Assembly (NCBI RefSeq): GCF_000004075.3
Contig: NC_026661.2
Location: 22,162,307 to 22,226,306, forward strand
DNA from: Cucumis sativus
Lineage: Eukaryota > Streptophyta > Magnoliopsida > Cucurbitales > Cucurbitaceae
Direction: 5' to 3'
Length of the DNA stretch: 64,000 bases
Shown: in pieces, positions 30,301 to 56,257 of the stretch
Layout of the letters: each line of letters opens with the position of its first letter
Numbering within the stretch: position 1 is the first letter of the stretch
Notes under the pieces: generated by a model
Database searches by the model: none
Told to the model about the DNA's origin: nothing
What the model saw: the letters and a program-made list of their open reading frames with translations, nothing else
Translations under genes and position numbers: made by a program

Positions 30301-31907
30301 ATTCTGATGAATTCCATTGATTCATCCGTTTAAGGGAAATTAAAGCTTCATAGAAGTTTTTCACATACAAGGATATGATTCTTGGTGCCGCTTCATTGCT
30401 ACAATTTAATCCACTCCAGGGATATCCCATCGGCATGCATGGATCTGCTTGCCAATCTTTCTTTACCCCATAGGTTGACTTGATATTGGTAATTGCTTCC
30501 ACTGATTATCCAAAGAAGTAATCTAATTAATATTCATTAACCTTTGACAAAGTCAACTCTCAATGTGCTTTTGAAGAAGGATGCCTACCATCTCCTTTGT
30601 CTGCCTCAAGCTCTGATATATCTTTCACTATATATACCTCGAAAGCATTAACGATGGGAGGAAGCGTTGCATTTTCAATTGGAGTAAAAGAAAATGTATG
30701 TCTATCTGCTGCATCCAATGGTTTATTGCCAAAAATGGTCAGAGTGGATAAATAACTTGGAATTACAGGTCCATAAAAAAGATCCCCATTGTGCATGATA
30801 TTGAATCCTCTACTCTGGTTGCCTCGAAGCTCTTCAACTTCAGCAACGTGGATGAATGCATAATATTCAGATGAATCTTCTGTATCCCACCAAATTTCCA
30901 GTGGATCGCTTGCATTTAGTCGGGAGGAAGCAGTTTGCATGACAATGGATGGTGGTTGGTGATTGTTGTGATCAGTTTCATCTACAGTTCGATTGGTGCT
31001 CACTTGTGTCCACTCTTTGAAGTTAAATGGTGCCCACATCCGATCATAAACATCAAAAGGGAACCTTAGGAGAGAGTAAACACATAAACATAATATCATC
31101 TCTGCCTTTAACTAGAGGCTTGTTAAAGCATATATTGTTTGCAATATTAGTGCTCAAATACCTGTATGTTTGATTTCCAGTTGAACCGACGTCCAATCGA
31201 TAATCCAGTGATAAGGACCCTGCGGCTGTTTGATAAGTGACATTAAGTAAAGGTCTAAATTCTAAGGCTGAGATAAATGGCACCCCATTTCCTGTGTTGA
31301 TCAGACAGATGTGAACTTTGTTTGAGGAGGTAATATGTATTAGATCTTTCAAAACGTTAGTACCCACTTTTGTGACGTTAATTGTCTCCCATAAGCTATT
31401 CCCGATATAGAGATCAAACATCGGTAGAGAATTCAGGCCATCATAATTCCCATATAAGAAACTTGCTCGAATCAAGTATTTGGTATCTTTTTTAACGCTT
31501 ACATTGTAACAATTTCTAATTCCTTGGGGAAAGCTTCTAAGTTTCCTCATTTGCTGTTGGAAGGTGTTTCCATAGACTGAAGCTACACTTCCACTTACAC
31601 CACTGTTTATGTAGGGTGCATCAGAAACATAGTCAATCGTGGTTGTTGTTTCGGTGTAACTCGTACCCTCTGGCGTTCCACAGTCTAAACTAATGAAGCC
31701 TGAGAAACATACAAGAAACGATTTAAACTTCTATTCTTTACACAACTCTTTGTATATGAAGATGATTGGAAGAAAGACAGATTGATTAGCTTCGGAGATA
31801 TATTTTTTACCTGACTGATCCTGGGCTTGAACAAGAAGTAGAAGAGTTAAACTGCATAGCAGTAAACCAAAGAGCGAATGGAGCCCTGACATTTCCATTG
31901 CCTTCAT
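27373..31907 (-). CDS. RLK6: malectin-like LRR receptor kinase, RD type, ADPC linker
   Basis: Exons read downward: 31811-31907 (signal; MKAMEMSG start, leucine-rich core), 31162-31699 and 30589-31064 (malectin-like), 30369-30501 (linker), LRR exons near 30285, 30121 and 29680, about 29030-29450 (TM, GKGGFG, VAVK), 28817-28945, 28637-28701, 28289-28480 and 27373-27794. The kinase has HRDVK, DFG and GTPGYLDPE. The linker reads WQADPCMP where all other copies have GDPC; in the related SYMRK receptor the GDPC motif governs release of the malectin domain, so processing may differ. Two introns are enlarged: the LRR2-LRR3 intron holds a solo LTR, and the intron before the last exon holds a LINE tail. 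The donor after QAE is GC (AG|GCAAGC). Likely functional. Confidence 0.9.
27880..28255 (+). mobile_element. 5'-truncated LINE tail in an RLK6 intron
   Basis: The intron between the activation-segment exon and the last exon of RLK6 is about 490 bases, several times longer than in its paralogues. The extra DNA ends in a U-rich 3' UTR-like stretch (TATTCTTTCATTATTCTTAA, then ATGAAATCTCTCGG) and an A-rich tail, as plant L1-type LINEs do. A short reading frame upstream (LFGFWHKGH) loosely resembles the end of a LINE ORF2. No clear target duplication was found. It is antisense to RLK6. Confidence 0.45.
29728..30018 (-). mobile_element. Solo LTR, probably Ty1/copia-like (fossil)
   Basis: A 291-bp insertion in the intron between LRR exons 2 and 3 of RLK6. 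On the minus strand it begins TGTTAGATAC and ends TTCTATCA, with a TATAAATAGG promoter box inside. It is flanked by a perfect 5-bp direct repeat GCTTC (29723-29727 and 30019-30023), the signature of integrase-mediated insertion. Only one LTR is present, so it arose by recombination between the two LTRs. Its intact ends and target repeat suggest it is not very old, but a solo LTR cannot be dated by LTR divergence. Confidence 0.75.
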
Positions 31908-36600: not shown

Positions 36601-37621
36601 GTTGTACCCATATCTAACCGACTATGATACAACAACGAGCTGGACGAGACGTAAGTCTCACTAGGCAAAGGTCTAAACTCTAACGAAGAGATGAAAGGAG
36701 TCCCATTGTTTGTATTTACAAGACAAATTTGTACTTGATTGTTTGAGGTCACATGTATGATGTCTGTTGTGATTTCGATGCTTTCCTCGGTGAATTTCAC
36801 TGTCGTCCATAGACTATCTCCAAAGTAGAGGTCGAAAGTTGGCAGTTTACTAAGCCCATCGTAATTACCATACAAGAAACCTGCTCGCATCAAATACTTG
36901 GTGTCTTTTTTAATGGCTATTGTGTAGCAATTCCTACGTCCTTGTGGAAAGCTTCTAAGGTGATGATATTGTTGTCGAAATAAAGTTTGATAATTAGAGG
37001 ATGGGCTTTTGCTTACACCACTGTTTATATAGGGAATATCTGAAGTAAAGAGAAGTGTTGTTGTTGATTCAACATAACTTGTATTTGTTGGCAATCCACA
37101 ATCTAAGCTGATGAAACCTACCAATAAGCAAATGAAGCTTAGAATCTTTTCTCTTTTTAACATTAATTTCTTCTTTAAATATTTGAATTCTTAGTTAAAT
37201 TTGGATAAACACAAAAATAAGTTGGATTATAGTTGTGTTTATAACAATTTTCTTGAAATCTATGCTTGTTCTTTTTCTTCAATTTTTTATATTATGGTTT
37301 TAACATATTTAGATAGAATACTTTGATTCTAAGTTAAAAAGTTTGGAATTTCTTTTTCTTTTCAAAATTTAGTTCAGTTTTTGATAATATGCAGTAGAAT
37401 TGGATAATAAAACATAGGAACTTATGAATGAAATGAGTGTTTTTAAGTCTAAATTTGAAAAACAAAAGACTTAATTTTTTTTTTATAAAAAGATTCAAGG
37501 AGTTAATTAGATTTATAAGATTAATATACATACCTAATTGATCTTGAGGCTGGACAAGAATGGCATTAAGAGCTAAGCAACCTAAAAAAGCGAGTAAATG
37601 TTGGGTAACAACCACGATCAT
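33604..37621 (-). CDS. RLK7: malectin-like LRR receptor kinase, RD type
   Basis: Exons read downward: 37534-37621 (signal, [14 protein letters not shown]), 36583-37117 and 35997-36487 (malectin-like, phases consistent), about 35720-35850 (linker with GDPC), LRR exons near 35632, 35473 and 35322, about 34772-35145 (TM near [21 protein letters not shown]), 34561-34688, 34382-34448, 34113-34310 and 33604-34021. HRDVK and DFG are intact; the P+1 loop reads GTIGYLDPE instead of GTPGYLDPE. The first intron, about 415 bases, is longer than in most copies. An in-frame upstream ATG at 37678 would add 19 residues, but the start at 37621 gives a cleaner signal peptide. RLK8 is its closest relative (HHKNL, EFMANG, SWQDRL shared). 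The donor after QAE is GT. Confidence 0.9.
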
Positions 37622-38728
37622 TTTGTTAATCTTAATCCTACAGATGGATTGAGTTAAATATCCGAAAGTCACAAACATGTGTAGTTTTTATATATATGTG
37701 ATTGTTATGTACTTTGTTTTGATCGATCCAATAATTTAATTAAGGCTAGCTAGTTTTAATAAACAAGATTTATTTAATTGACTTTTTAAGCATGATGATG
37801 ACAACTTAAGAAAACAATTAGCAACCATGTCAAATTCAAAAAATCAAGTGTTGAATATATAATATATATATCTTTGTTTCATATACCATATCATGCAATG
37901 TTGTTATTATTTTTTGAGATGTTGGGTGGATTTATAATAATATCATTGACTAAGCTTTGATATCCATATTTTTCCTTTTCATTTAATTTTTTTATATTTA
38001 ATAAGTAAATAAATTATACGTTAACTAATCGTAATTTTAAAATTTTCGTACAAACAAGACTTGCGTACAATTAAACCGTGAACGACCAAATCCATGCATG
38101 GAAACTTACAAAATAACCTTCAATGTTTGGTTTGGGTCATGAATTATCTAGGTCTCTTCCTCCTTTCTAGTTTTATCAATTTTTTTATTCTAATTTTAAT
38201 ATTACATTTTAGATGTCACAAAAATCATCCGAACAACGTTGTGTCGATGAAGTTGTTGAAATTGATGGATTAATAAGTGAGTGACCATAATCAAACGAGA
38301 AAACGTAGCCAATCGATTACAAATACTTCAAAAGGATATAAATTTTTTATATCTTTTTTTTTATGTTTAACATTGGATATTATTAAGAAAACAAGAAATA
38401 GTTATCCGACACATTTTTATAAAAGAAAACGAAAAACAGATAGTTACCAAATAAACTTAATAATTCGTTCAGTGTGACTTTCTTCTAAAATTCTAATAGT
38501 TCGTCAAAATTTAAATATAAAAAGTTAAAAGAAAAAGTAAGCAAAATTAGATGTCACATACTCACACCTATTGTAAATATATAAATACATTGACTTTGCT
38601 TCAAAACCATAAAGTAAAATGCTTGTTTGTTAATTTAATTAAACTTTAGAATCCAACTCGATATAGTTTACAATCAAACGAAAAATCAACAAGATCCTGC
38701 AATCCCCATATGAAATTCAACAACTTTT
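37622..38728. other. RLK7 promoter and RLK8 3' flank
   Basis: No gene seen; strongly AT-rich. A block with TTGACT at 37754-37790 is shared with the RLK8 promoter. The open frame at 38277-38477 has no family resemblance or splice context. Confidence 0.6.
37754..37790 (-). promoter_or_regulatory. W-box-containing block upstream of RLK7
   Basis: TTTAATAAACAAGATTTA, then AATTGACTTTTT, matching the order of TTAATAAACAAAGATTTAAC and CATTGACTTTTC upstream of RLK8. The TTGACT core (37778-37783) is the WRKY-binding W-box type. It lies about 157 bases from the start codon. WRKY control is inferred from the motif and from the known behaviour of FRK1-type genes. Confidence 0.4.
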
Positions 38729-41700
38729 TCATCTAGCCATTGGAGTGGCTTCACTATAATCCATTACAATGGACATCATGTTGACGGAATTCGTCGAATT
38801 AAACCCTCCACTCTCCGGTGTTCGTTCCAATTCCATGGCTAAACAACTCTTCAGCTCCCCCACCACATGGTTCATCGTTGGTCTTCTTCCAGAGTTCCCA
38901 GATACACAATTCAACGCCACCTCCACTGCCTTCCACACTGAGTTACCATCATAGCTTCCTCCCAATCTTTCATCCATTATTCCGTTTATGTCCCCTTGAG
39001 CCACCATCGAGTTTACCCATTTACTGATATGGGCATTTTCTTCACTTCTTGATATCACAGGTCTGCAGCTGATTATCTCCAGTAGAGCTACTCCAAAGCT
39101 GTACACATCGCTTTTCTCCGTCAGCCTGTTCGATAAGTAGTAGCTGGAAACACACAAGCCAATAACGTAAACTTTATTAGAGCTTTGAAAATAGGATCTT
39201 CTACTTTTATATCATGTTGGGTTACTGCGGAATTTTTTGTTTATGCAAAAAAATATCATATTGACTTGGCAATTGGAAGGGAGTGAACAAATTTTGGTTC
39301 CTGTTCTTACTCTGGATCAAGGTAACCAGGGGTGCCAGCAACAACGGTGGACATGTAGTTGTTAGTCTTGTTGGCATCTACTGGGAAGCTTTTGGATAAA
39401 CCAAAATCTGCAAGTTTTGCTTGGAAATTCTCTGTCAATAAAATGTTTGCTGTTTTCACATCTCTGTGGATTATGGGTGGCTTGCAACCATCGTGTAGGT
39501 ACTCCAATCCTGTTTTGAACAGTTAGAAATTTGTCTTATGTCGATTAGGTGTTTTTAAAAATGCTCATGTGAACCAATCAATTTACCTTGTGCTGCATCC
39601 AACGCTATCCGGAGTCTATCTTGCCAACTTAGCACATATGAACTCGTTTCTGTTTGAGTTTGACAAGTTGAGAGAGACAAAAACTGATGTCAAATTTTTG
39701 GGTGTTGGGTTGAATGATAAAAATTATGGTAAAAAAATGCAGAGAAATAAGCACAACTTTAGAAAATAAAAAACATTGGTGGAAGTTTTTTTAGTTAATT
39801 GCAAGTAGATCACCTGAAAGATGCTCTGCTAAGTTTCCTTTGGCCATGAACTCATAAATGAGACCAAGGCGGTCTCCTTCATTCATATATCCCACAAGAC
39901 TTGTCAAATTTTTATGGTGAACTCGCAAAAGAAGTGTAACCTGCAATATGGAAAACAATACTTCGATGAATTATAGGGATAAGCTGATTACTCGGAGATA
40001 AACTTTAGTGATGTACACGTGCCTCTGCTTGAAACTGTTGATAACCAAGACCTGAAGCTTGAGAAATCATCTTCACGGCCACTTGAGTGTTGTCTATAGT
40101 GCCATAGTAAACTATCCCAAAACCTCCTTTTCCTAGAACTCTCTCGAAATGATTGGTCATCCTCAAGACTTCTGAATATGTGAACTGCCGCCTCCTTGTC
40201 TCCAGGAACTGATCACTTATTTGATCATTGGGTCGTGAGGGTCCTGATGGATCCACTTTTGGAACAACGGTTTTATTTTGTTGTTTCTTCCTTGATTTAA
40301 CAATTAAAAGAACGATGATTGAAACTGCGACGAGGCCTATGAATCCACCAACTGATGCTACAATTGGAATAACAATACTAGTCTTCTTCTTCTTACTCTT
40401 GCACGAATCTGATGTACAAACTAGATTTGGATTCCCTTGAAAACTATATCAATAAAACATATGAGAATCAATTTGTTTTGATGAGAAGAGTCTATGAAGG
40501 CATCAAAATTACAATTACATTAACATAAACCATAAGTTTTTGTTAGAAACTAAACCTTAATGATAACGAACCATCATCCATTTTCTTAAGAAGTTCAGAT
40601 GGAACAGAGCCTGCGAGCTTGTTGTTATCTAACTTTCTGTATAAAGAGAAATCAACGATATTTTAATATTGTGCATCTTAAGTCCTATCACTCAAGTTGA
40701 GTTATGCCTTTTACTTACAAGACTTTAAGGTTTGACAAGGAAGAGAGAAAATCTGGGATATTTCCCGTCAAATTATTGTTTGACAAGTCCCTGCAAAGAT
40801 TAAAGATGGTTAATCTCTAAAGTAGTTCCAATTAGGATAGGGTTGAATACATCTAATCATTACTTACAATATTTCTAGCATTTGTAGATTCTCTATACTC
40901 TGAGAAATCTCTCCTGTCAATCCACTTGATGACAAATTCCTGAAGAAAAAAAGAGTTAATCATTTCATGTAAATGGTTAGAAAGGAATATTTGATCGTGA
41001 GTTGCTTACAAAGACAGAATTCTAGGAGCAGTTTCATTTGTTTTGGTACAATCTATACCCTCCCAAGGGTATGCTCTTGGAACGCATGGATCTCCTGCCC
41101 AATCTTTGACTATTCCATAAGTTGACTTGATGCTTGTTATTGCATCCACTTATTATTCATATGACAGACAAGGATTAAAATCAGTTTAAAGTTCACACAA
41201 GTGAAGGAAAATTTTAAGATAGATAATAAGATTTAGTAAATACCATCTCCTTGATCTGATGTTAGCTCTGACATATCTATTACAGAATATATTTCCATGG
41301 CATTTATGATTGGAGGGTGTGTTGAATTCTCAATTGGTATAAGTGAGAATAGATGCTTCTTTTTTGGTGTTTTTAATGGACTTATACTATAAACCGTTTG
41401 TGTTGTCAAGTGCTCGGTTATGAGAGGACCATACCAAAGACTCCCATTATAATTGATATTGAATCCTCTGGTTTGAGGGGCTTCGAGATTTTCAACTTCC
41501 GCAAAGTGCATATATACATAAAACTGGGTGTTTACATCTTCAGGCTCCCACCAAATATCCAAAGTCTTTTCGGTATCTATTCTAACAGCTGCAGTTCCCA
41601 TGACGGCCGACCCTGGTTCGTAACTATCATCAGTTGAATCTATCATAAGTGTGGTACTTATGCTTGTCCACTCAGGCCAATTGAAGGGCGGCCAAAATCG

Positions 41701-42538
41701 ATCATATATATCACTAGGAAACCTGAAGAAAGAAGTTGACACATACTTTTTAGGAGGATTGTGAGTATTCAAATTAGAATGTGTCACATGTATGGAATAA
41801 ATTTCGTTTCTTTGGAACCGACCTGTATGTTTGATTCGATATTGTACCAGTATCTAATCGGTAGTAAAGTAACAACGATCTTGTCAAGGTCTTATAAGCG
41901 TTATTTGGCAAAGGTCTGAATTCCAACGTAGAGATGAATGGAATTCCAGTGTTTGTGTTGACGAGACAAATTTGTACATGATTGTTTAAGGTTACATGTA
42001 TGGAATCTATTGTGGTATCTAGATTCTCATCAGTAAAATTCACCGTCTTCCAGAAGCTATCTCCAAAGTAGAGATCGAATTTTGGCAGTTGGTTGAGCCC
42101 ATCGTAATTCCCATAGAAAAAACTTGCTCGCATCAAATAATTTGTATTCTTTTGTACACTTATATTGTAGCAATTTCTACGTCCTTGTGGAAAGCTTCTA
42201 ACATGAAGATATTGTTGATGTAGATATTCGTTATAAGTAGAGGACAAACTTTTGCTTTGACCACTGCTTATATAAGGAGCATCAGAAGTAAATCGAAGTG
42301 TTGTTTTTGGTTCAACGTAGTTTGTGTTTGGTGGCAATCCACAATCTAAGCTTATGAAGCCTAAAACACAAGCAGATGAAACTTAGTTGATTGATTTTAT
42401 GAAGAAACAAGCAGTAATTAGACTGAGTTTGGGGCATAAATATGCATTACCTGTTTGACCTTGAGCTCGAACAAGATTAAGCAGAGCTACGCCACTCAAA
42501 AAGATAAAGATCAGCAAATATGTTGAAACACCCATCAT
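38729..42538 (-). CDS. RLK8: malectin-like LRR receptor kinase, RD type
   Basis: Exons read downward: 42451-42538 (signal, [14 protein letters not shown]), 41823-42360 and 41244-41722 (malectin-like), about 41011-41148 (linker with GDPC), LRR exons near 40939, 40791 and 40638, about 40024-40446 (TM near [21 protein letters not shown]), 39813-39940, 39587-39652, 39310-39509 and 38729-39143. The kinase has HRDVK, DFG and GTPGYLDPE, with a slightly longer activation segment ([11 protein letters not shown]). The C-terminal tail ends ATPMAR, matching the family. The donor after QAE is GC (AG|GCACGT). This is the last minus-strand member of the array and looks fully functional. Confidence 0.92.
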
Positions 42539-42619
42539 GATTAGATTACCTTCTTAATTCCATTTCCATTGAGTTATATATCTATAATTGCTAATGAGCA
42601 ACAAATTTATGTGTTTTTC

Positions 42620-42656
42620 ATTAATAAACAAAGATTTAACTTCATTGACTTTTCTA
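42620..42656 (-). promoter_or_regulatory. W-box-containing block upstream of RLK8
   Basis: Partner of 37754-37790 upstream of RLK7, with TTGACT at 42645-42650, about 107 bases from the RLK8 start codon. Likely shared by descent. Confidence 0.4.
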
Positions 42657-45464
42657 GATTGGTGTGACAGCTTATGAATACAAGTGGACCAGATGAAGTT
42701 CAATTACCTAATATAAGCTTGAGTATACATATGAATGCAGATACTTTGGATATTTGAGATACATTAATATTAATAATAATATGTTTTGATGTTTTTTTTT
42801 TTTTTCTTCAAGAAAAATGAAGTTTTGTTAATGGTCTTTGCATTTGCAAATTTGTTTTTTAATAGTCATTATTCTAAAGTCTAATGTATGTAATTTAGAT
42901 GGCCATCACGTAGTTATTTATTTTCTAAAATTTTAGCTTCCATTTTGTATAGTTTGGTTACTGTGTACCCTAGTTTATAAAGTCAACTAGCTAGTTTATA
43001 GAGAGAAAATTAAAGAAGTAAATGATTTTTCATTCCATGATAATTAATTAAGCACATTATACTATACTATTGACTATGCTAATGAATATATATATATGAA
43101 CCAAAAAAATTAAAGTATGAAAGTCGTTCTCAGTGTCATTCTCTCCAAACCAATAATACTCTTTGATTCTTCTCCAATTTTTGTTTTTCAATTTGTTTTT
43201 GGGTTGGTTCTTTATTTTATTGAAGGTTGAGTGCTTCAACAATTTGATGTCATACCAACAATTTTGGACTAAAATAAATTAGAAATAATGCTCAAGTTGT
43301 CTCCTAACTTATCCTCTTGCTCTATATATTTAAAATACTCATACGGTATAACACGACGTGATTAGATATAAAAAGATTGTTAATTCTCAATCTGTCTAAA
43401 TAAAAGAAAAATAATCAATATGAGTATTTTGATTAACAATAACTTATCCTCTTTCTTTTTCAACGTAAAAATAAATTCGAAACTAAAAATAAATTGTGAT
43501 TGCAAAGAAACGTTATTAAAAGAGCAGTAATCATAGTGATTGGAATAATTCTTTCCATTTATCTATTTATGAGAATTATGGAATCTTCGACTTGTTCTAT
43601 GCTAAGTGGTGAAGGTCAACATACATATACTATACATACACATATGATATATTATAAACCAACATGCCCTTTTTCTTATTATATATTCTCTTAGTCAAAT
43701 CAGGGTTTGATTAAAGGGATGAATGAAATATAGTGATTTAAGGCAATATATATAGATTTTTTTTGAACCAAGAGACTTAATTTGAGTTATAGCTTTCTGG
43801 CAGTTTTTATATAGCAGTGGGCCATTATGAGTTATATATATCTATCTCACTTTCTCTTCCAAGTTAAAGAATTACATCTAAGTTTTAAAACCACATAACA
43901 CTCATAAATATATATATAATTAATGATGAATCATTTTTGTTGAGATATGATATATGAAAACCCATTTTGAAATAAACATGAAGCTTAGGGAGCATATAAG
44001 AGAAGAAAGGTGAAATCCAATCAAGAAATTTATGTTGTCTGCAGCCAACCCACATGAATTGCCAATAGCTTCAAATTTATTACAAATCTCTCTTCAAAAT
44101 TAAAATAAATTCTCCCAGAAGAAACCAAACTTGCTTTCCAAAGGTTGAAAATGATGGGGAATAATGTTTTAGAGTTTCGAAGATGCCACCTCTTTCCTCA
44201 CTACTCCAAAATGTTTGAGAATTAATTGAATTCATTATCTGACGTCAATTGCAAACTTTAAACAAATTTATTATTGATACCACGTAAAGGTTATATGTGT
44301 TTGTTTTTTTTCTTATATATAATATAATTACTTTCTTTGATTCTTTTATCATTTGAAAGTCGATCTTATTTGATATCTATTTAAATTGCTCAAAATTCTA
44401 AAAAACGAAACCAAACAACATACAACGACGTGAATAAAAACAAGCATTTCTAACTTATTTGGTACTTGAGCCATCTAAATATAATACACAATGGGTGAGA
44501 TGACAAAATTGTTAATAAATAAACTCAAATAGTTCAAAGTCACCTTTGAACTAGATTAAAGAAAAGTATTGCTTACATACATTATAGTTTGTTTTACGTG
44601 ATTGATTATGATTGACGATGTGCAAGACTATAGGTGTTGCACACGATGTATTCATATACGCGTATATATTTAGAAAAACATATGTTTTGTATTAATGAAA
44701 AAAATGATGTAACACCTCATAATTTTGCACCATTTTAATTAGGTGTATGTATGTGAGATTTGAGTATCATGATATTGATAGAATTATTAAGGTGTCCCTT
44801 TCCATTATAATTATTGCATATGGAGAAAGAAAAGGTTGAAATGTTTCATTCCCCTCGTTCCCATCTAACACAATCTTTGAAACATTTAAATTAATTAATA
44901 TCACATCATCACCTAAACTTTCTTCCCCTAATTTCTCTTAAAACTAGCAAATAATTAATGTCTTTGTGGTTTAGTGGAACATCATCTTTAGGTCCAATTT
45001 ATGATTTTAATTAGGCCTTAAAATTAACTTGATGGCCATTTTCCTAGTGATAATATAATGCTTCTTCAACATTATTAACCTTCTCCCTTATGTTAATGAA
45101 ATAAATAAATAAGTATGCATCAAACTGGTAGTTGTGAATGTATGTAATATTGTCCATTTTGGTGGATTGACTTTTTGGGTTATTGTAGGAAAACATCATA
45201 TCTCTCATATATATCAACAAATTAATTGATATAAAAACTTAAAACAAACAAATATACGAAATCTTAAAGTAAAATTTTCAAAGAAAGTACACTGCAAATT
45301 TATATATATACCATGCCTAGCCTAGCTTGGTTTGATCATCACGAGAAGATGAAATCAATATGCATGCATGGTGTCACTGCAGCCATCAAAGTTGATTAAT
45401 TTTGCGTAATATTTTGGAACATGGTTGGAAAAGTTGGACTGTACAACGTGAAATAAGTATAAAA

Positions 45465-45546
45465 GAAAGTCAAAATTGTACAAATATTTCAAAATATTAT
45501 CACTTTTGATTGATTATTCAAACCCCATGGTTTCATTATAAATATA
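45465..45546 (+). promoter_or_regulatory. CRP1 promoter: GAAAGTCAAA element and TATA box
   Basis: GAAAGTCAAA at 45465-45474 (a TTGACT W-box core on the other strand) and TATAAATATA at 45537-45546, about 130 bases before the CRP1 start codon. The same 10-mer is upstream of CRP2 and CRP3. Confidence 0.5.
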
Positions 45547-45668
45547 TGGATCCATGCAGCTTCAAAATCATCACCAATAATCCAAAGAAGTTTGAGTACA
45601 TACACGTACGTACCCAATAGTACATACCCCTTCACTTCACTGTTATATCTCTTCAAAATATTCTACCA

Positions 45669-46064
45669 ATGGCCATACCTAAACTCCCTCTAACCTCTGT
45701 TTTTATCACCGTTCTCGTCTTCGCCATGGTTCTCTCTCCCATGACAACTCCAACCGCCAGTGCCACTCGTGTTCTTCTACAGCAAAGTAAGGATTTTTTT
45801 TCCTTTTTTTTGTAAATTAAATATAGACAGTTTGTACATTTGAATTTGATTAATAAACAACAGTAGCTATTTTCTTTAATGGAAAAAACTTGGTTGTTAA
45901 TATTTAAAGCTAATTATGAGTTGGGGTGGTGTGTGTATGTGTGTGCAGTTAATAGGCCGCCTATATGTCCGGCGTGCGTGTGCTGCGAACCGCCACCGGC
46001 GGGATCCTGTTGCCGCTGTTGTGCTTCTCCGATTCAGACTTCATCTCAGAACGGGTCGCCATGA
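45669..46064 (+). CDS. CRP1: small secreted cysteine-rich peptide
   Basis: Two exons, 45669-45786 and 45949-46064, joined at a GT-AG phase-1 intron to give 77 residues. The first exon encodes a signal peptide (MAIPKLPLTSVFITVLVF) followed by ATRVLLQ. The second encodes a short mature region with eight cysteines in the pattern CPxCxCC-x5-6-PPAGSCCRCC. CRP2 and CRP3 share the intron position, the (A/T)R(L/V)L stretch at the exon end and the cysteine doublets. I do not recognise a named family. It would be secreted to the apoplast, where such peptides can act as signals or antimicrobials; the function is unknown. An AATAAA lies downstream near 46288. Confidence 0.8.
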
Positions 46065-47788
46065 AAAAATCAGAATTTGCTGATCATACTTGCTGATCTG
46101 TCCATGGGAGTAAGGATTTGAAGATGCATGCATGCTTTGAGAATAAGGAGAAGACGAATCTCCATTATCCAAATAATAATAATAAATACTAATTAAGATT
46201 TGTTTTAATTAGGTTAATGTGTGATTAGATTAATGTTACGTTGTTATTTGAATTAATGAAGTCTCAGTTTGATATTCTAATTGAAGAATAAAAGAATGAA
46301 AATAATATACTTCAAATTTAGTGTTTGTGAATTCCCTTATTCCCTTAGCTTTGATATTATGCTTTGGAGATGAACTTAGGAAAAAAATCTCAAAACTTAA
46401 AGAATAAAAAAGATGTAATGTTAATTATGAAACTTTAGGGATGAAATGAAAATTAAAACCAAAAGTTAGGGATAAAAGTAAGCACCAAATGAAAATCAAC
46501 TCAAAACTCAAAATAACAGTAGAGAAAGAAACTCTTTTATGATCTAAGTTATCACTGTTTACCTTAAAACTCAAAATCTAGACCTCAAAATAACAGTAAG
46601 GGAAAAAAAAAAACAAAGAAAAACTTATTAGAAGAAAAAACAAAAGAATATGTTGATCCAACCATGAAATAAATAGGATTTTCGATGCATTTGAGATTTG
46701 TCTCTTTCTTTTTTTGTGTTTTCATGATGGAAATTAGGTTTAATTTGCTCATTTTGGTTTTCTTTATTTTTCAATCTTGAAAGATTTAAGAAAATAATGC
46801 TTGATTCGTGATGTTATAACCACATCAGTGTCATTTTGTTAGATATATAATTATAATGGGCTAATCAACATCAATATATTTTAATCCTTACTAATTTGAA
46901 TTAGAGTTTCTCAAATGAAAAAGTCAATCTAGAAAACCCTAATGGATGCAACTAAATTCTCTCTAAGCTCCATTTTGTTGGTGATTGTTCTTGTATATAT
47001 CTGTTGGGAAGAAAAAGAGAGTAAATTATAAAAAGCAAACGACTGTGAAAATTTTCTGATATGTATGTAATTAAAAAGTTGTTTATTTCCTTTCATGGAA
47101 GAAGTCTACTTGATTAATTGATTTCGTATCTATTAATATTCACACCTTAATTATATTAAACCGAATAATAAATATTGAATAAACAATAAAATTAATGCTC
47201 GTCATCTAATTCATCAGTTTCCATTAATTGAAAATTTGCTTGTGACAGCTAGATGGGATCTTAATCAATTAAGTTCAATTCACTGTTTAGCCAAGTTTGA
47301 ATAATATATAACATTTCTATATAGCTTGATTATAAATACTTGGTGGGTTTACGAATGGTGTTTTTAGTTGCATACAAGATTGAAAATGTATTGTTTTTAG
47401 TGTTTAATACAAATTAGTGCTCAAAATCCCGATTTGTCTAAGCAAATTAAATGAAAATATATCCTCATGGGGTAACTTAGATTTGTCTTTACATTAAAGT
47501 AGTCTGTCTCTTCTAGCATTCAATTTCAATCATAACCAAGTCATGTGTAAGATTGTTTTTTAAAATATATAGTGATGATAAGTTTATGATTAATAAGAAA
47601 AAGGTACAATAAAAGCTGGGGAGCTAAAAGTACTTTTGAAAGTCAAATATATAGAGAGCACCAACTTTGGTTAAAACAAAAATGGCATACAAAAATAATA
47701 ACAGAATAGATCAGTTGTGTGTGTGTATTATATATTATAAGGGAGAAGGGTTCGATTATTACGACAAAGTTGAAAAAATATCATAACG
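46065..47788. other. Intergenic, CRP1 to CRP2
   Basis: AT-rich, no gene, RNA or mobile element recognised apart from the CRP1 3' flank and the CRP2 promoter. Confidence 0.6.
47638..47654 (+). promoter_or_regulatory. CRP2 promoter: GAAAGTCAAA element and TATA-like box
   Basis: GAAAGTCAAA at 47638-47647 runs directly into TATATAG at 47648-47654. A second TATA-like run lies nearer the gene around 47728-47741, so the start of transcription is uncertain. The 10-mer is 142 bases before the start codon. Confidence 0.45.
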
Positions 47789-48372
47789 ATGGCCATTCTA
47801 AGGTCCCATTACTATACTCTTGCTTTTGTTGCTCTTTTCATAGTTTTCGTGATGGTTTCTTCTCCTCTCATGATAGCAAGCTCCCATGCAGCTCGTTTAT
47901 TGACCAAAACAGGTGAGCAAATTAGTCTCAAATGTTTCGGAGTTTAGTCTTAAATAATTTTATCTCTAAGTGAACTAAAAGTTTAATTTATTGTCAACTT
48001 AATTTCATAAATGTTTGTCTGATGGTTTTACCATAGAGAGCTTTCTCAATTAATGAGTTGACAGAATTAAAATGTTTATAAATGGATGTGTGAGAAGTTG
48101 TTATATTGTACATGTGTAGATGGGGTTCTGAGAATATATATCAAAACATTCAAGTCTTACTGTGATGTATATATATGTGGGGATCATTGGATCAAGGTGT
48201 AAGGGTTTAGATACTTAGTTAGGTTGAGATTTAAGATGAACAAATTTGGGTTGACTTAGACTTAAGAGATCCTTCACGCAACCTTTGTATATATTGATAT
48301 GCAGATCATATTCAACCTTTGTGTTGCGAGTGCTGTGGTTGTTGCTCTACTTCTGATCCGTTGAAGCCGTGA
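47789..48372 (+). CDS. CRP2: small secreted cysteine-rich peptide, compact form
   Basis: Exons 47789-47912 and 48305-48372, phase-1 GT-AG intron, 63 residues. The signal peptide is strongly hydrophobic (LAFVALFIVFVMVSS) and followed by SHAARLLTK, as in CRP3. The mature part has only six cysteines in three doublets, LCCECCGCC, without the CPxC start or the PPPxG spacer of CRP1 and CRP3. It is either a contracted relative or a different fold. The frame is open and the splice sites are good, so it is likely expressed. Function unknown. Confidence 0.75.
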
Positions 48373-49244
48373 ATATAATTTCATTGGACTTATATTACTG
48401 CTTCATCAAATCCAACTTCAACATCGTCACCTATCGTCTCTAATATATAAAGACATCCTTCAATAGTAAACCAGTACTCAGCTCAATATATAAGCTGATC
48501 AAAAGCCATGTACTAATGTCCATTTGAATGGTTGGAAGCTTGAATCTCCATTAATCCGTATGAATTCAAATCTAGCTTGTTACTTATGGTTTTTGTTGTA
48601 TATTCATGCATGTATTCTATGTAATGGTAATTTGAACATTAATTAAACGAAATTAAACCCATGTTTTCATTTTGATCAAACTTAATTTAAAAAACAGATA
48701 TGACAAATAATTTTTTTAAAAAATAAATGACCAGGACTAAGCTTTTCATACCCGGCCATTTATTAAAAAAATTAATTAGAGCAATCATACCTCTTTAATA
48801 AAGCCAACAAGTAAATAAATAAATAAAAGACAATTGCACCTTATTATATTTATTTTTGCATAGAAAATAAGGTTCAATATTTTTACTAATTTTTCTAATG
48901 CCCTAAGTCGTGTGGATCCATTAGCAATGTTTTAGTTAAATAATCGGAATCGCAACTATATACAAAATTTTTGGATGCTCATTATTTAATTCTAAGTTGA
49001 AAGTTTCATGAGACTATTATTGCCACATTAAACCTTGCACTACAATCAAAGAAGAAAGATCAAACATAATTTTTTTAAGAAGAAAAAGAAAGTCAATCTT
49101 AATTATTTTCTAATTACTTACCGAAATTAATGAGCCTAATTCACACCTAAAGCTTACATTGTATTCTTATAACCTTAAAATTAGAGGGATGATTATGTAT
49201 TCTCTATGCTACATATTATTAATTATAGACCTTGATACTGTACT

Positions 49245-49568
49245 TCCATGAAAATTCAATATTCAATAATTCCTTTAAGAGTGTGTGTGCTAATAATATA
49301 CTAATCTTTTCTATTGTTGAGTATATATCTTGCTTAAAAGAAAAAAGAAAAAAAAAATCGTCTAATAAATGTGAACTCAAACTCGCTCTTTTGAAATTCA
49401 AAACCTCATTATTGTATTTAATAATCCACGAAAATTTAATATTCAATACTTTCTTACAAATGTTTATGCTTATGTACTAAATTTTTTCTATCATTAAGTA
49501 AAAAATAAAAATAAAAATATAATGAATGTGTGAACTCAAACAAGCTCTTTTGATATTCAAAACCTCAT
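49245..49568. repeat. Imperfect tandem duplication, about 150-165 bp units
   Basis: Unit 1 (49245-49409) and unit 2 (49425-49568) share their starts (TCCATGAAAATTCAATATTC against TCCACGAAAATTTAATATTC) and ends (both finish with TTCAAAACCTCAT). Several differences and length changes separate the copies, so the duplication is not recent. It ends about 80 bases before the CRP3 W-box element. Confidence 0.65.
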
Positions 49569-49646
49569 CTTAGAGATGTGCATAAAATATGGAATGGGGA
49601 TAGGTTTGATGAGAATAAAGTGAATATAAAAGTAAGAAAAATGTTT

Positions 49647-49706
49647 GAAAGTCAAATAGAGGGGCTATGCTTTGCTTCATAATTAAAGGAAAACAGCCTA
49701 TAAAAG
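49647..49706 (+). promoter_or_regulatory. CRP3 promoter: GAAAGTCAAA element and TATA box
   Basis: GAAAGTCAAA at 49647-49656 and TATAAAAG at 49699-49706, 55 bases before the start codon. Spacing is typical of a plant core promoter. Confidence 0.55.
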
Positions 49707-49753
49707 CATGCAATAGAGAAATTTAATTTGGTGTAGTGTTAAAGAATATAATC

Positions 49754-49905
49754 ATGGCTCTGCAAAGGTGTGGCAATAACGTTGGTTTTGTTGCTGTTTT
49801 CATAGTTCTAATGGTGGTTTCTTCTGCCCCTGATCTCATGCTAATTACTACCTCCCATGCAGCTCGTTTGGCCAAAATAGGTGAGCAAATTTAATACATC
49901 AATTT

Positions 49906-49944
<39 letters not shown>

Positions 49945-50099
49945 GTTTAATTAAGATTGAATACATAATTGGATATATAATGGTAATTTGGTTTTGGGTT
50001 TGGGCAGATCCACCAATGTGTCCTCAATGCATGTGTTGTAGTTCACCACCACCAGGGTTTTGCTGTGATTGCTGCTCCAATTCTCAGTTGCCACCATGA
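49754..50099 (+). CDS. CRP3: small secreted cysteine-rich peptide
   Basis: Exons 49754-49880 and 50008-50099, phase-1 GT-AG intron, 72 residues. The signal peptide (VGFVAVFIVLMVVSS) is followed by SHAARLAKI. The mature part has eight cysteines: CPQCMCC, then SSPPPGF, then CCDCC. This matches CRP1 (CPACVCC, PPPAGS, CCRCC) far better than CRP2 does. The intron contains a (TA)n microsatellite. Function unknown; secretion is inferred from the N-terminus. Confidence 0.8.
49909..49942. repeat. (TA)n microsatellite in the CRP3 intron
   Basis: About 17 TA repeats. Likely length-polymorphic; no coding effect. Confidence 0.9.
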
Positions 50100-51295
50100 A
50101 TAAAATTCATCTTCGTTACATGTAATTACCTATGATATGTAACATTATTAAATATTTCATAATCCATTATATTGGATTAGTATTTAAGCTTTATATATAT
50201 AACTATTATGTAACCCTACTACTCTATTTTATTACCCTTGCTCTATATATATAACAATAGAAATTATTTAAAATATTTCAATGTATTCTAATAGTAATTA
50301 TAATATAAACTACTGATTACTTTAGGTAATTAAGCTAATGGTTCGAGTTGTTGATATTAATTGTGCTTTAATTATATTAGGATTTTCTAATTAAATTGTA
50401 CTCTTTAGATATAATACCAATAAATAAAAAATTGATACATATAGTATTATATATACCATCATCTTCATGACGCATTGTATGTGATAGGAATGGAGACAAA
50501 ATTTAATATATAGTACTCTTGTTTTGCTCATTCGTAAATAATAATCAACTCCTTGATTATTTTTTGAAGGGATTTTGTTATTGATCACCAAAAGTAAAAC
50601 AAAAAGAAAATAATATATATATTTCTTTTAAACAATAATATATTTATTCTCAACACCCATGCCATTTAGATATAATTAATTACTTAGAAACTCATGTAAC
50701 ACCATTTAATTTGGAATTTGGATAATTTTTTTAAAACTTAGTATACTTTCTGAAATGGACATTACCATTTAACAATTAATTGGAAATTATGAAAGTCTTA
50801 CATTACTTATACAATATATATTCAAATAGTGATGATACTGGATGTTTGATATAAGATCAAAAGCTAAGACACAATGATATATATATATATATATATATAT
50901 GGAATGTGAATGTGTATTTTTAAAATTCATAGAAAGAATGGTATACAACATAACTTCTTGAAAACGTTACCCATAAATGAAGAATAGTAATTACATTAGA
51001 AATTTGTGTTCACGAATTAGGTTTTTAATACACTAATTAAATTGTTTTTAACTTATTTTTCTTCCCTTTTCATCTATATCTATGTATGTATATAGTTGTT
51101 TGAGCATTGACCTAGGAATTAACAAGTGGGAGAATCAATAATCATATTATATATAAAGAAGTTTATAGGAAAATGTCAAATGTCAATGAAAATTCCAATT
51201 CCAATTCCAATTGCAACTAATAATTTGTTTGGATTATAACTATAAAGAAGATTAAGAAATAGGAATTATGCAATTAAAAGCATAGGGTTTTAGAA
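50100..51295. other. Intergenic, CRP3 to RLK9
   Basis: AT-rich, with a second (TA)n run around 50876-50900. TTGACC occurs near 51107 and two GTCAA cores near 51174-51186 upstream of RLK9. No gene recognised. Confidence 0.55.
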
Positions 51296-54200
51296 ATGAA
51301 TTTGGTCTATGTGGTGTGTGTGTTTCTTTTGGCAATTGGCTTCCACTTTCTATCCCTTCATGCCGACAATTCTCCCAAAGGTAAACCAAATAATTATATT
51401 TTTCTTTTAGAAGATCTTTAAATTAATTTTATTGTTTTTATTGATTAACCTCATGATCATAATTCAGATTTAGAAAAACATTCTTGTTTTTTTTCATTTT
51501 TCAAATTACCTAGATTTCAAAAGAAATAAAACCCAATTTCAATTTTCATCAATTTTCATCAATTTTAGGAGTTGTGTTTGCCAATTGAGATGTGTAAAAT
51601 GCCTTTGTTTGTGGCACAAAGTTATAAAATATGAAGTTAGTTGATATAAATTTTCGAAAAATAAAAAATGAAATGATAAATTTTACTATACCTTTTAATT
51701 TGTCTGGTTAGGTTTGGAAGATGTGATTTTTAAATCATCCATTTAAGTTAATTATTGTTTCTTTATAAAGTTTAGAGTTTTAATAAGCAAAATTTGAATC
51801 AAACCAAAGATGTATTGAAAAAAATTGATAACTTATGAACGTTGGTGATCTTTAACGGTTAAAATTATTGATTCAGAGTTTAAATTAATACACAACAATA
51901 ATGTTTAAAGGGTTTAGTTGATATTTTTCGTAATTAAAAACAAGTTAAAATTTAATTTATTGTTGTTTTTAAATATACCAAAACGAATCAAAATAATTAT
52001 AAAATATAATAAAATTCAAATTTTGATTAATGGAAGATAATAAGCACTAATAGACTATATCTACTGATATTCGTCAATCAATGTCTCTAAATCAGTATCT
52101 ATAGTACAGAAAGTCTAAACTTTTAGAGTAATACTCGGTGCAAATTGAACCTCGTTCATTTTTGCATTTTTTCTCACTATTCATATAAAGAGAATGTTAA
52201 TTTTCATAAATATAACAAAATGTAAAATATTTATGTTTTAAATATAACAAATGGATAACATTCCATTTTTTAAAAATATTTTGGCCATTTTCATAGTTTT
52301 GCTTTTCTTCTGTCATTTTTAAATATTTACAAATATATTAAAATATTATTTAAGTGAGCGTATTTGATTTATTTATTTTTGTATAAATTACATAAATTTT
52401 GAAATTTGCCGCTCTGAGTTTGTTTGAAGATTTCATTAGCATCGACTGTGGCGGAGTTGTTGATTCCGTAGACTCCGAGAGTGGATTTCCATACAAATCA
52501 GATCAAAATCTCATAGATTCAGGAGTTATCGGTCAGATTTCCTCAGACATTGCCGATAATTATCGTCTTCAATACAGACACCTAAGAAGTTTTCCCCACG
52601 GCGTGAAGAACTGCTACACTCTCCGCCCAGATTCCGGCAGAAACAACAATTACTTGATCAGAGCCATTTTCGTTTATGGCAATTACGACGGTAAAAACAC
52701 TACCCCTGTTTTCAGCATCTATGTCGGCGTTAATCTGTGGAGTACCATCATATACGACGATACTAGAACGGAGGCCATTGTCGTGCCTCCCACAGATTAC
52801 ATAGACGTATGCCTTGTCAATATTGGGAATGGAGTCCCTTACATTTCTACCTTGGAATTACGCCCCTTGGATAACTCTGTTTATCGCACTGATCCCCAGC
52901 AGTTCCTGGTCTTGTCCACTCGACGCGATGTTGGCGGCGATTATAGACTCAGGTAATCCATTTGACTGGAGTGCCTTAATTCTTTGTTTCAACCTGCTTA
53001 ATTTTAAGAATTATTCCTTTTCTTCAATAGATATCCACAGGATGTTGATGATCGAATCTGGGTAGAGTATGATGATGACTTCAATTTATCGTGGTTGAAG
53101 AAGATTCAGACGAACGGGAGCATCACGCAGAATAGTAATGATCCGTACAAAATACCAGCATCGATGTTGAAAACCGCTTACGGAACCCTAAATTCCAGTG
53201 TTCCTTTCGTCTATGAGTGGTTCCCTTACGACTTCAGCCCTACTATATATTTCTGCTTTCATTTCGCTGAGATTGAGAAGTTAAGTTCTGGAACGGTTCG
53301 AGAAATGAGTATTGTGTTGAATGACATCTACACCATTGCACCATCTGTAATTCTTCAGTATCTCGTACCACAAACCATATGCACAACTTCCGCTGGTATC
53401 CCTGTTAATATCAATGAAGAGAATTACTTGCGAATTTCCGCTGCTTCCGGTTCGAAACTTCCTCCCATTATCAATGGGTTTGAGCTTTTTTACTTCGCAA
53501 ACCTCTCTTATTCACCTACATTCTCACAGGATGGTATGTTTCTTCCTTTCATTCTCCAATTCTTGTTCATTACATTAATATTATTGTCTTTGGATACAAG
53601 TTTTTGCATTATTTTTGTCTGCATGTATAGTTAATGCTGTAATGGACATAAAGAATACGTTCAAGCTATTGAACAGTGACTGGCAGGGGGATCCATGTTT
53701 GCCTGAATTTTCTATATGGAGTGGTTTAAACTGCAGCCACGGTAATCCTCCTAGGATCATTTCACTGTGAGTGCTTCATTTTAACTCAACAAACTTGACC
53801 TTGTCGATAAATATTCAAATAATTTCCGATGTAAATAATTTCTGGGAAAGCAGGAACTTGAGTAGGAGCAATTTAACAGGAGAGATCCCATTTTCCATCT
53901 TGAATCTCACTCAATTGGAGACTCTGTACGTGCTTCACTGTTTAAGATTACATGAAATTGAACTTTGATTGACAAAATCATTACATATAGCTCTTTTTTT
54001 TATTCTAATCCTCAACCTGCTTTTTTATCTTACAGGGATTTATCCTACAATAACTTAAGTGGATCACTTCCAGAATTTCTAGCACAACTACCTCTTCTGA
54101 AAATCCTGTAAAATATTAACTCTTTTAACCCTCGATTCTCAATTGCAAGTAAAACATTTTGCAGGATAGGATCAGTATAATTGATTGGATTACTGATTAT

Positions 54201-56257
54201 CTTTTGACCATTTCCTTGCAGCGATTTAACTGGTAATAATCTTGGTGGCTCAGTTCCGGAAGCACTTCATGTGAAATCTATAGATGGAGTTTTGGATTTG
54301 AGGTATCACTGATTGTATTCCCTTAAATTCTACGAGAAATTCACATATTCTTCTTGTCACTGCCTTTGATTTTGTGATTTAGATTCTCACTATTCGCTTC
54401 TTCCTCTTGTTGAATGCAGAGTGGGTGATAATCCAGAACTCTGTTTGTCACCTCCTTGCAAGAAAAAGAAAAAGAAAGTTCCTGTTCTTCCTATCATCAT
54501 TGCTGTAGTAGGAAGCGTCATCCTAATTATAGCCTTGGTCGTACTTTTAATTTATAAGAGAAGCAAGAAAAGTAAGTCATGTCATTTCTTGATGCTGCTT
54601 TTGTGTTTCTGATGATAAGTATTGGCCCTTAGAGAGAATTTGGAGAGGAAATATCTGCTTGTGAATATGTCTTGTGGATTATGTTTTGTAGAGAATTCGA
54701 GAAATTCGACGGAAGAGAAAATTTCACTAAAGCAAAAACATCGGGAGTACAGTTATTCTGAAGTCGTGAGTATTACAAATAATTTCAAAGACATCATTGG
54801 AGAAGGAGGATTTGGAAAAGTATATAAAGGTGCTTTGAAAGATAAAACTCTGGTTGCTGTTAAGCTGCTCTCATCAACGTCAAAGCAGGGCTATAGGGAA
54901 TTTCAAACTGAGGTTATAAATAATATATGTTTTAAACAATTATTGAATTTTTTCTCTCTGTTTTTTCAATTTTGATTGAATTCATATGATAATGCTTCAG
55001 GCGGAACTCTTAATGATTGTTCATCACAGAAACTTGGTTTCTCTTGTTGGATATTGCGACGAGGGTAACACCAAGGCCCTCATTTACGAATACATGGTCA
55101 ATGGAAATTTGCGGCAACGTTTATCTGGTAATCATGTTTTATGATGAGATTTCATTTTCTAATGTGTTAATTAGAAACAACTCAAATAGAACTGGAATAG
55201 TATCAAAATATGAAAGATATAGCAGTAATATATAATCAGATACTTGGAACCTCATATCTTTAGTAATTTCACTCTAAGCCTAACTTCTATCCTAATAGAA
55301 TTTCAATCAAAATCCTAAAACCCTAAATTTGTTTGAAGTCTTGAGACAAATACTCCCTAAGACGTGTGAATGAGGTTAATTTCAACTAGAATTAATAGAA
55401 TCGTTTTGGCTACAGACGCAAACACAGACGTTCTGAGTTGGAATGAAAGACTTCAAATTGCAGTGGATGCAGCACATGGTTACCATCATCATCAACCTTC
55501 AACTTTCTCACCTTTCTTCTTCGTTATTATTATTATTATTTTAATTATTTTCTTTCCTTCCTCTTCCATGGATGTTTCAGGACTTGATTATCTACACAAT
55601 GGTTGCAAGCCAACAATAATCCACAGAGATTTAAAACCTGCCAACATACTATTAGATGATATGTTGCAAGCCAAAATAGCTGATTTTGGATTGTCTAGAA
55701 CTTTCCAAGTTGAAAATCAACCTGAAATGTTAACACGATTAGCTGGAACACCAGGGTACTTTGATCCTGAGTAAGTACTTCAATAAAATTGAATTTCACC
55801 TTCTACACACGATGTCTTAAAATTGATGGTAAATTGATCATATTTTTTTTATGTTTTCAGAAGCCAAACGCTTGGAAATTTGAATAAGAAAAGTGATGTA
55901 TATAGCTTCGGGATAATCTTATTTGAGTTGATCACTGGCTCCACTGCAATAACAAGAAGCTACAATGGAAATAACATTCACCTTCTAGATTGGGTTGCTC
56001 CAATAATGAAGAAAGGGAAGATTGAAGATGTGGTTGATGTGAGAATAAAAGGAGAATTTAACCATAACTCAGCTCGTAGAATGGCGGAGATAGGCATGTC
56101 ATGCACCAAACCAAATGGTAACCAAAGGCCTGACATTAGTGTTGTTTTGGAGGAGCTTAAGGAGTGTTTGGCAGTGGAGATGAGTACACTTTCAGAAAGC
56201 TGTGAATTTTCTTCAACAATTTTATCTGAGTTTAATGTTGGTCCTAATCTTAGGTGA
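51296..56257 (+). CDS. RLK9: malectin-like LRR receptor kinase, RD type, diverged subgroup
   Basis: Thirteen exons: 51296-51380 (signal, [15 protein letters not shown]), 52430-52952 and 53031-53533 (malectin-like, FISIDCGG and [11 protein letters not shown]), 53631-53766 (linker with GDPC), LRR exons 53854-53925, 54036-54107 and 54222-54302, 54420-54571 (TM near [15 protein letters not shown]), 54692-54912 (N-lobe, GEGGFG, VAVK), 55001-55127, 55416-55478, 55581-55770 ([17 protein letters not shown]) and 55861-56257. They total 2622 nt, 873 residues, in frame. Unlike RLK1-RLK8, an intron separates the transmembrane exon from the N-lobe exon, and the malectin domain starts FISIDCG. The first intron is about 1 kb. 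All catalytic motifs are present, so it should be an active kinase. It points away from the minus-strand array. Confidence 0.93.

What the first reader, a model, noticed from the sequence alone, without database searches (positions are those of the whole stretch)
38729..56257. Secreted cysteine-rich peptide trio at the switch point between two receptor-kinase blocks
Three peptide genes lie between eight minus-strand and two plus-strand malectin/LRR receptor kinases. Physical linkage of small secreted peptides and receptors is known for some plant recognition loci, such as the S-locus of Brassica. Here the linkage is seen in sequence; a ligand-receptor relation is inference.
Basis: partly seen in the sequence, partly recalled or inferred. 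Interest (0 to 1): 0.7.

Follow-up and report, generated by a model that had tools for sequence, protein, structure and literature searches.

The report
Defence-type peptide trio inside receptor cluster
In a plant genome that looks like cucumber, three related genes for small cysteine-rich peptides, probably secreted, sit in the gap between two oppositely facing blocks of receptor-kinase genes; the linkage is real and testable, but nothing yet shows that the peptides bind those receptors.

Summary
Between 38729 and 56257 lie three tandem two-exon genes (77, 63 and 72 aa), each with a signal-peptide-like exon and a short Cys-rich exon. They fill the 8.8 kb head-to-head gap between eight minus-strand and two plus-strand malectin-like/LRR receptor kinases (LRR-I type); the cluster continues outside the window to at least 13 genes. 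The peptides share a phase-1 intron, look under purifying selection, reach no Pfam cut-off, and were found only here in this genome (limited sensitivity). Each has GAAAGTCAAA, a W-box-containing 10-mer, 98-204 bp upstream of its ATG and nowhere else in the window. Most likely they are WRKY-controlled, defence-type secreted peptides (inferred). That they are ligands of the neighbouring receptors is a hypothesis (about 0.25). Against it: three apparently older peptides face 13 receptors, some of them young duplicates, and four other fetched malectin loci hold no such peptide. The S-locus is only an analogy: neither receptor nor peptide belongs to its families. Extra finding: two plus-strand receptors right of the window are chimeras, R6-like through LRR1 and R10-like from LRR2 to the kinase.

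The parts
45669..45786 (+). P1 exon 1: start, hydrophobic leader, candidate cleavage after ASA
45949..46064 (+). P1 exon 2: CPACVCC...GSCCRCC cysteine module and stop (77 aa in all)
47789..47912 (+). P2 exon 1
   Evidence: 78% DNA identity to P3 exon 1
48305..48372 (+). P2 exon 2: shortened cysteine module CCECCGCC and stop (63 aa in all)
49754..49880 (+). P3 exon 1
50008..50099 (+). P3 exon 2: CPQCMCC...GFCCDCC cysteine module and stop (72 aa in all)
45465..45474 (+). W-box-containing element GAAAGTCAAA upstream of P1
   Evidence: 3 in the window, 0.38 expected
47638..47647 (+). W-box-containing element GAAAGTCAAA upstream of P2
49647..49656 (+). W-box-containing element GAAAGTCAAA upstream of P3
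38729..42535 (-). R8, malectin-like/LRR receptor kinase, left neighbour of the trio (12 exons)
   Evidence: (model)
51296..56257 (+). R9, malectin-like/LRR receptor kinase, right neighbour of the trio; the model's last two small exons beyond 56201 look spurious and were left out
   Evidence: (model)
1957..6545 (-). R1, malectin-like/LRR receptor kinase; HGD in the catalytic loop; model has a frameshift mark at the exon 8/9 junction; first exon uncertain
7144..11677 (-). R2, malectin-like/LRR receptor kinase, pseudokinase-like (HGN; GTPGY segment missing in the model); first exon uncertain
12634..16368 (-). R3, malectin-like/LRR receptor kinase; model has a frameshift mark, and a stop in its last exon
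17770..21802 (-). R4, malectin-like/LRR receptor kinase; first exon uncertain
22786..26746 (-). R5, malectin-like/LRR receptor kinase with a frame break in the activation-segment exon (23302-23490)
27376..31907 (-). R6, malectin-like/LRR receptor kinase; its ectodomain type is shared with R11 and R12
33607..37624 (-). R7, malectin-like/LRR receptor kinase
58664..63204 (+). R10, malectin-like/LRR receptor kinase; start exon uncertain; the model's last two small exons look spurious and were left out

Best explanation
The trio are real, tandemly duplicated genes for small secreted cysteine-rich peptides of the defence type, lodged in the divergent gap of a large LRR-I (malectin-like/LRR) receptor-kinase cluster. 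Most likely WRKY factors switch them on through a shared W-box during pathogen attack. The leader is cleaved in the ER, and the mature peptides of about 29-45 residues fold in the apoplast through paired cysteines and act in the same immune branch as the neighbouring receptors. Shown: gene structure, coding constraint, linkage, the shared W-box sequence, and no further copy found in this genome. Inferred: secretion, WRKY control, an apoplastic immune role. Open: whether any peptide binds any of these receptors.
For: Three paralogues with the same intron phase and place. pN below pS in all three pairs. A strong hydrophobic leader and no second hydrophobic stretch or C-terminal tail. GAAAGTCAAA (W-box core on the other strand; motif recalled) occurs exactly three times in 64 kb, once 98-204 bp upstream of each ATG, although blastn at E 1e-3 finds no similarity between the gene units except P2/P3 exon 1 and the overlaps of the units themselves. 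The three 250-bp promoters share this 10-mer; 2 of 1000 Markov-1 triples and 1 of 1000 random separated triples reach 10. Literature lead: AT1G51915, recalled as a small 'cryptdin-like' protein gene beside the Arabidopsis LRR-I cluster, is in a list of Hpa-site-specific induction (downy mildew), and IOS1 (AT1G51800), an LRR-I kinase, is in a localised-induction list of the same study (PMC4498041, passages).
Against: No expression data could be examined. When random 250-bp windows are drawn only from the same intergenic region with overlaps allowed, 30 of 1000 triples share a 10-mer or longer, a figure inflated by overlap. 32% of random 250-bp stretches of the window hold some W-box, and receptor promoters are not clearly enriched: 8 of 13 have one within 500 bp, with 0.76 expected per 500 bp (several receptor starts are uncertain). 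Homology of these peptides to AT1G51915 was not tested: no sequence was at hand.
Confidence: 0.55

Rival explanations
1. Ligand-receptor locus: one or more of the peptides is the endogenous ligand of one or more neighbouring malectin-LRR kinases, and linkage is kept because the partners co-evolve (a RALF-like use of a malectin ectodomain).
For: The family was found only at this locus. It sits exactly at the head-to-head junction. Ectodomains differ more than kinases, for example R4/R5 66% against 94% identity, and were exchanged between blocks in R11/R12. RALF peptides are perceived by malectin-domain CrRLK1L kinases (PMC10317173, passages).
Against: Three peptides against 13 receptors; by dS the peptides look older than the R3-R5 duplications. 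Four other fetched malectin loci (C3 twice, C4, C5) hold no such peptide. Some LRR-malectin kinases perceive cellulose-derived ligands (PMC10317173). In R4/R5 the kinase end has a lower dS (0.085 against 0.42 in the malectin exons), which points to kinase gene conversion rather than ligand-driven selection; malectin dN/dS was 0.20-0.56 in 11 pairs.
Confidence: 0.25
2. Direct defence peptides: the Cys modules act as antimicrobial or metal-binding apoplastic peptides, with no receptor role; linkage to receptors reflects only a shared immune neighbourhood.
For: Very high Cys density in a short exon. The label 'cryptdin protein-like' is given to a grape gene discussed in phytoplasma-infected vines (PMC8037961, abstract and passages), and 'cryptdin protein' to a differentially expressed gene in a trunk-disease study (PMC12220349, passage).
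Against: The grape name rests on a PANTHER label, and membership of these peptides in that family was not tested here. The cysteines come as CC/CxCC groups, and no defensin or other Pfam model reaches its cut-off.
Confidence: 0.3
3. Chance neighbours: the peptide genes fell into, or pre-existed in, the gap and have no functional relation to the receptors.
For: No synteny, co-expression or binding data; no peptide at four other fetched malectin loci.
Against: In this genome the family was found only in the cluster. If the recalled Arabidopsis order (AT1G51910 receptor kinase, then AT1G51913/15/20 small proteins) and homology are confirmed, the linkage has been kept between Brassicales and Cucurbitales.
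Confidence: 0.25
4. Arabinogalactan (AG) peptides of the cell wall: the Arabidopsis gene AT1G51915 is catalogued as AtAGP42.
For: P1 has 44% P/A/S/T. AtAGP42 = At1g51915 is used as an AG peptide predicted to have no GPI anchor (PMC7769824, passages); the Brassica rapa table gives BrAGP42 30, yes, no and 77, which I read as %PAST, signal peptide, GPI and length without having seen the column heads (PMC5372829, table passage).
Against: P2 and P3 have only 33% P/A/S/T, no C-terminal hydrophobic tail is seen, the shared feature is cysteine rather than AP/SP/TP repeats, and homology to AT1G51915 is untested.
Confidence: 0.07

Closest known systems
Arabidopsis LRR-I (malectin-like/LRR) receptor kinases: IOS1, FRK1, SIFs
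   Same: Malectin_like + short LRR + kinase architecture (R8 and R9); stress roles and a tandem/proximal duplication pattern are described for the subclade (PMC12382012, passages).
   Different: Here 13 genes lie in two opposed blocks with a peptide trio between them, and two members are ectodomain chimeras. Subclade membership was judged from architecture, not from a tree with Arabidopsis proteins.
PTHR36328 'cryptdin protein-like' small proteins (grape Vitvi09g01554; the same label for Arabidopsis AT1G51915/AtAGP42 is recalled)
   Same: Small plant proteins tied to infection in print: AT1G51915 in a downy-mildew-site induction list (PMC4498041), the grape gene in infected vines (PMC8037961).
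Brassica S-locus (SCR/SP11 with SRK)
   Same: A small Cys-rich secreted peptide beside a receptor kinase (general knowledge).
   Different: The receptors are malectin-LRR, not S-domain; the peptides reach no Pfam cut-off; several paralogues instead of one pair; no allelic data.
RALF peptides and CrRLK1L kinases
   Same: Peptides perceived through malectin-type ectodomains (PMC10317173, passages).
   Different: No RALF match; the receptors here carry LRRs.

Membership tests
LRR-I (malectin-like/LRR) receptor kinases | Malectin_like ectodomain, short LRR block and kinase in one protein | tested here: met
   R8 and R9 match PF12819, an LRR model and kinase models (2 of 13 scanned); PF12819 matches at all 13 loci and the aligner extends the other 11 through LRRs and kinase.
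LRR-I (malectin-like/LRR) receptor kinases | Active-kinase motifs (catalytic-loop HRD, DFG, GTPGY region) | tested here: inconclusive
   11 of 13 cluster models read HRD; R1 reads HGD and R2 HGN without GTPGY; R5 has a frame break. The models rest on a hand-typed seed.
LRR-I (malectin-like/LRR) receptor kinases | Groups with Arabidopsis LRR-I in a tree | not testable with these tools
   No Arabidopsis proteins were at hand; trees held only this genome's genes.
Brassica S-locus (SCR/SRK) | S-domain receptor kinase | tested here: not met
   R8 and R9 show Malectin_like + LRR and no S-domain model.
Brassica S-locus (SCR/SRK) | SCR/SP11-type peptide | tested here: not met
   No Pfam family matches P1 or P3 up to E 10; P2 gives only a bacterial FtsL_2 match below its cut-off, E 0.088.
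Brassica S-locus (SCR/SRK) | Haplotype polymorphism with allele-specific pairs | not testable with these tools
   One assembly only.
Plant secreted cysteine-rich peptides (general) | N-terminal signal peptide and several Cys in a short mature part | tested here: met
   12-residue hydropathy 3.1-3.3 within residues 11-23 and A/S-x-A cleavage candidates at residues 32, 34 and 36; 8, 6 and 9 Cys in P1, P2 and P3. No signal-peptide predictor was available.
PTHR36328 cryptdin-like | Match to the PANTHER model | not testable with these tools
   PANTHER is not held; the name comes from a grape report and from recall for Arabidopsis.
AG peptides | At least about 35% Pro/Ala/Ser/Thr (threshold recalled) | tested here: inconclusive
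   P1 44%, P2 33%, P3 33%.
RALF | RALF Pfam model | tested here: not met
   No match for any of the three.

The most novel reading that the evidence does not exclude
The trio are endogenous ligands of LRR-I malectin kinases, a receptor class recalled as having no firmly established peptide ligand. The peptide-receptor linkage is ancient (also at the Arabidopsis IOS1/SIF cluster beside AT1G51913-AT1G51920), and ectodomain exchange between the two blocks (R11/R12) re-pairs ligand-sensing halves with different kinases.
Probability: 0.18. Interest if true: 0.85.

Novelty: new member of a known kind. Interest (0 to 1): 0.42.

Why it matters
Ligands of the LRR-I immune kinases (IOS1, FRK1, SIFs) are, as far as recalled, largely unknown. 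A compact locus with three candidate secreted peptides, a shared W-box and a set of receptors, two of them with exchanged ectodomains, gives a small and directly testable ligand-receptor matrix in a likely crop genome. Even if no binding exists, three defence-type peptide genes without a Pfam family are worth annotating.

Tried and rejected
Relatives of the peptides in IMG/VR (P1) and in GTDB genomes (P3): none (these collections are not of plants, so this says little). Pfam for all three: nothing over a cut-off. PDB sequences with P1 only: 4 matches at E 0.33 or worse, taken as chance. PDB with the R8 ectodomain: the 60 of 116 matches shown all lie in its LRR end, which adds nothing on the malectin part. 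A first Cys regex on the window gave the three peptide exons and two unrelated frames. Further copies in the own genome: protein searches found P1 and P3, P2 alone and P3 alone, so the protein search is not very sensitive: it missed the known paralogue from exon 1. DNA of P3 exon 1 recovered P2 as a positive control and nothing else. CPxCxCC as DNA: 20 places, 2 of them P1 and P3; of the 18 others 9 were fetched and none looked related, and the other 9 were not inspected beyond their matched letters; the reversed control pattern gave 12. A PPG-CCxCC pattern gave P3 alone. PxxGxCCxCC as DNA: 3 places, P1, P3 and one in a Gly-rich frame that looks unrelated; control 3. Peptides beside other malectin loci: none in 140 kb at four places on C3, C4 and C5, nor in 60 kb of cluster flanks; most other malectin loci of the 70 matches were not examined. 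W-box enrichment in receptor promoters: not clearly above chance. Positive selection on the malectin exons: dN/dS 0.20-0.56 in 11 pairs, none over 1. One paralogous gene, C3c, was dropped from the trees because its kinase part could not be modelled. A PF13855 search with a very strict E-value found nothing and was uninformative. Rfam: two tRNAs only. Literature, from listings unless passages are cited: searches for Cys-rich peptides with receptor clusters, IOS1/LRR-I ligands, cryptdin-like names, cucumber LRR-I clusters, linked peptide-receptor clusters, Arabidopsis neighbours and grape neighbours showed no report of this arrangement; they cover only the open-licence library, and most listed papers were not opened. 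Passages opened without use: PMC5550703, PMC7730307, PMC11396901.
Full report
What is there. The window is C7:22162307-22226306 of a 226.6 Mb genome in 88 contigs. Genome size and the contig lengths seen (C1 32.9, C3 40.9, C4 26.8, C5 31.9, C6 31.1, C7 22.5 Mb) fit cucumber, Cucumis sativus, as recalled; no call names the species. A search with the Malectin_like family gives 70 matches (exon pieces) in the genome. On C7 they outline a cluster: one gene left of the window (R0), eight minus-strand genes R1-R8 and two plus-strand genes R9-R10 in the window, and two more plus-strand genes R11-R12 to the right. R8 (898 aa) and R9, which flank the peptides, have Malectin_like, LRR and kinase domains, the architecture of the LRR-I subclade.

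The peptides. Splice-site enumeration gives P1 (77 aa), P2 (63 aa) and P3 (72 aa), each with two exons and a phase-1 GT-AG intron after the leader. P2 and P3 are 39% and 43% identical to P1 in the alignment. P2 lacks the first CPxC and the proline-glycine spacer. Each has one strongly hydrophobic stretch within residues 11-23, A/S-x-A cleavage candidates at residues 32, 34 and 36, and no further hydrophobic segment. All three pairs show pN 0.33-0.36 against pS 0.60-0.75, which fits purifying selection; one dS value is saturated and the sequences are short. A mechanical scan found these three places in the window, none in 200,000 bases of 20 other loci and none in 8 simulated windows (designed after the fact). 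No Pfam model reaches its cut-off, and P1 has nothing above chance in PDB sequences.

Restricted to this locus. Protein searches, DNA of P3 exon 1 (it recovers P2 as a control) and motif patterns gave no further relative. The protein search did not recover P2 from P3 exon 1, and 9 of 18 CPxCxCC places were not opened, so more diverged copies could be missed. Scans of 200 kb, of which 60 kb are cluster flanks and 140 kb four other malectin loci on C3, C4 and C5, found none.

Promoters. The 10-mer GAAAGTCAAA, which contains the W-box core on the other strand (motif recalled), occurs three times in the window, once per peptide promoter; 0.38 are expected and 0 of 100 shuffles reach 3. The distances to the ATG are 195-204, 142-151 and 98-107 bases. 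Blastn finds no other promoter similarity at E 1e-3. A common 10-mer in three 250-bp promoters was reached by 2 of 1000 Markov triples and 1 of 1000 random separated triples, but by 30 of 1000 triples drawn with overlap from the same region. Receptor promoters are not clearly enriched for W-boxes: 8 of 13 within 500 bp.

Receptor evolution. Gene models from a spliced aligner gave trees of 16 proteins (13 of the cluster, C3a, C3b and C4a; C3c dropped). The malectin domains of R11 and R12 group with R6 (100/99), while their kinases group with R10 (100/100). Per exon, both are closer to R6 in exons 2-5 (R12 also in exon 1; exon 1 of R11 is poorly modelled) and closer to R10 in exons 6-12. This fits one recombination in the intron between LRR1 and LRR2 before R11 and R12 duplicated (inference). 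R4/R5 have dS 0.42 in the malectin exons but 0.085 in the last kinase exon, which suggests gene conversion. R2 and R1 have altered catalytic loops, and R5 has a frame break.

Literature. AT1G51915 is listed under Hpa-site-specific induction and AT1G51800 (IOS1) under localised induction (PMC4498041, passages). At1g51890 and At1g51920 stand together in one cell of a co-expression table, row AT4G18250 (PMC3725900, passage). That AT1G51913/15/20 follow an LRR-I kinase array is recalled and rests on gene numbering; homology to P1-P3 was not tested. A review states that some LRR-malectin kinases perceive cellulose-derived ligands and that CrRLK1L kinases perceive RALF peptides (PMC10317173, passages). 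A species-wide inventory notes high presence-absence variation with tandem or proximal duplication for the LRR-I subclade, and stress roles of IOS1, FRK1 and SIFs (PMC12382012, passages).

Judgement. Linkage and the genes themselves are solid. A defence role is likely but inferred. Binding to the neighbours is a fair hypothesis with evidence on both sides: locus restriction, position and ectodomain exchange for it; unequal numbers and ages, the lack of peptides at the other malectin loci examined and possible glycan ligands against it. Filing it under the S-locus kind is not supported.

Noticed in passing
C7:22226454-22236964 of the own genome (window coordinates about 64148-74658, right of the window; L016 and L017): R11 and R12 are chimeric receptors: exons 2-5 resemble R6 of the opposite-strand block, exons 6-12 resemble R10, with a clean switch between LRR1 and LRR2.
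   Followed up: yes
window 17770-21802 (R4) and 22786-26746 (R5): R4 and R5 share 94% of kinase residues but only 66% of malectin residues; dS is 0.085 in the last exon against 0.42 in the malectin exons, which suggests recent gene conversion of the kinase end.
   Followed up: partly
exon 8 ends of R4, R5, R6 and R8 (models end near window 19010, 24007, 29006 and 40017): After the conserved exon-8 end, 4 of the 12 cluster genes reported (R4, R5, R6, R8) have GC, 7 have GT and R1 has GA; R2 gave no match. The four look like GC-AG introns.
   Followed up: partly
window 7144-7826, 2485-2644 and 23302-23490: R2 looks like a pseudokinase (HGN, GTPGY segment missing in the model), R1 reads HGD, and R5 has a frame break in the activation-segment exon.
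   Followed up: partly
window 56423-56494 (-) and 57110-57182 (+): tRNA-Gln (TTG) and tRNA-Glu (TTC) genes lie between R9 and R10.
   Followed up: no
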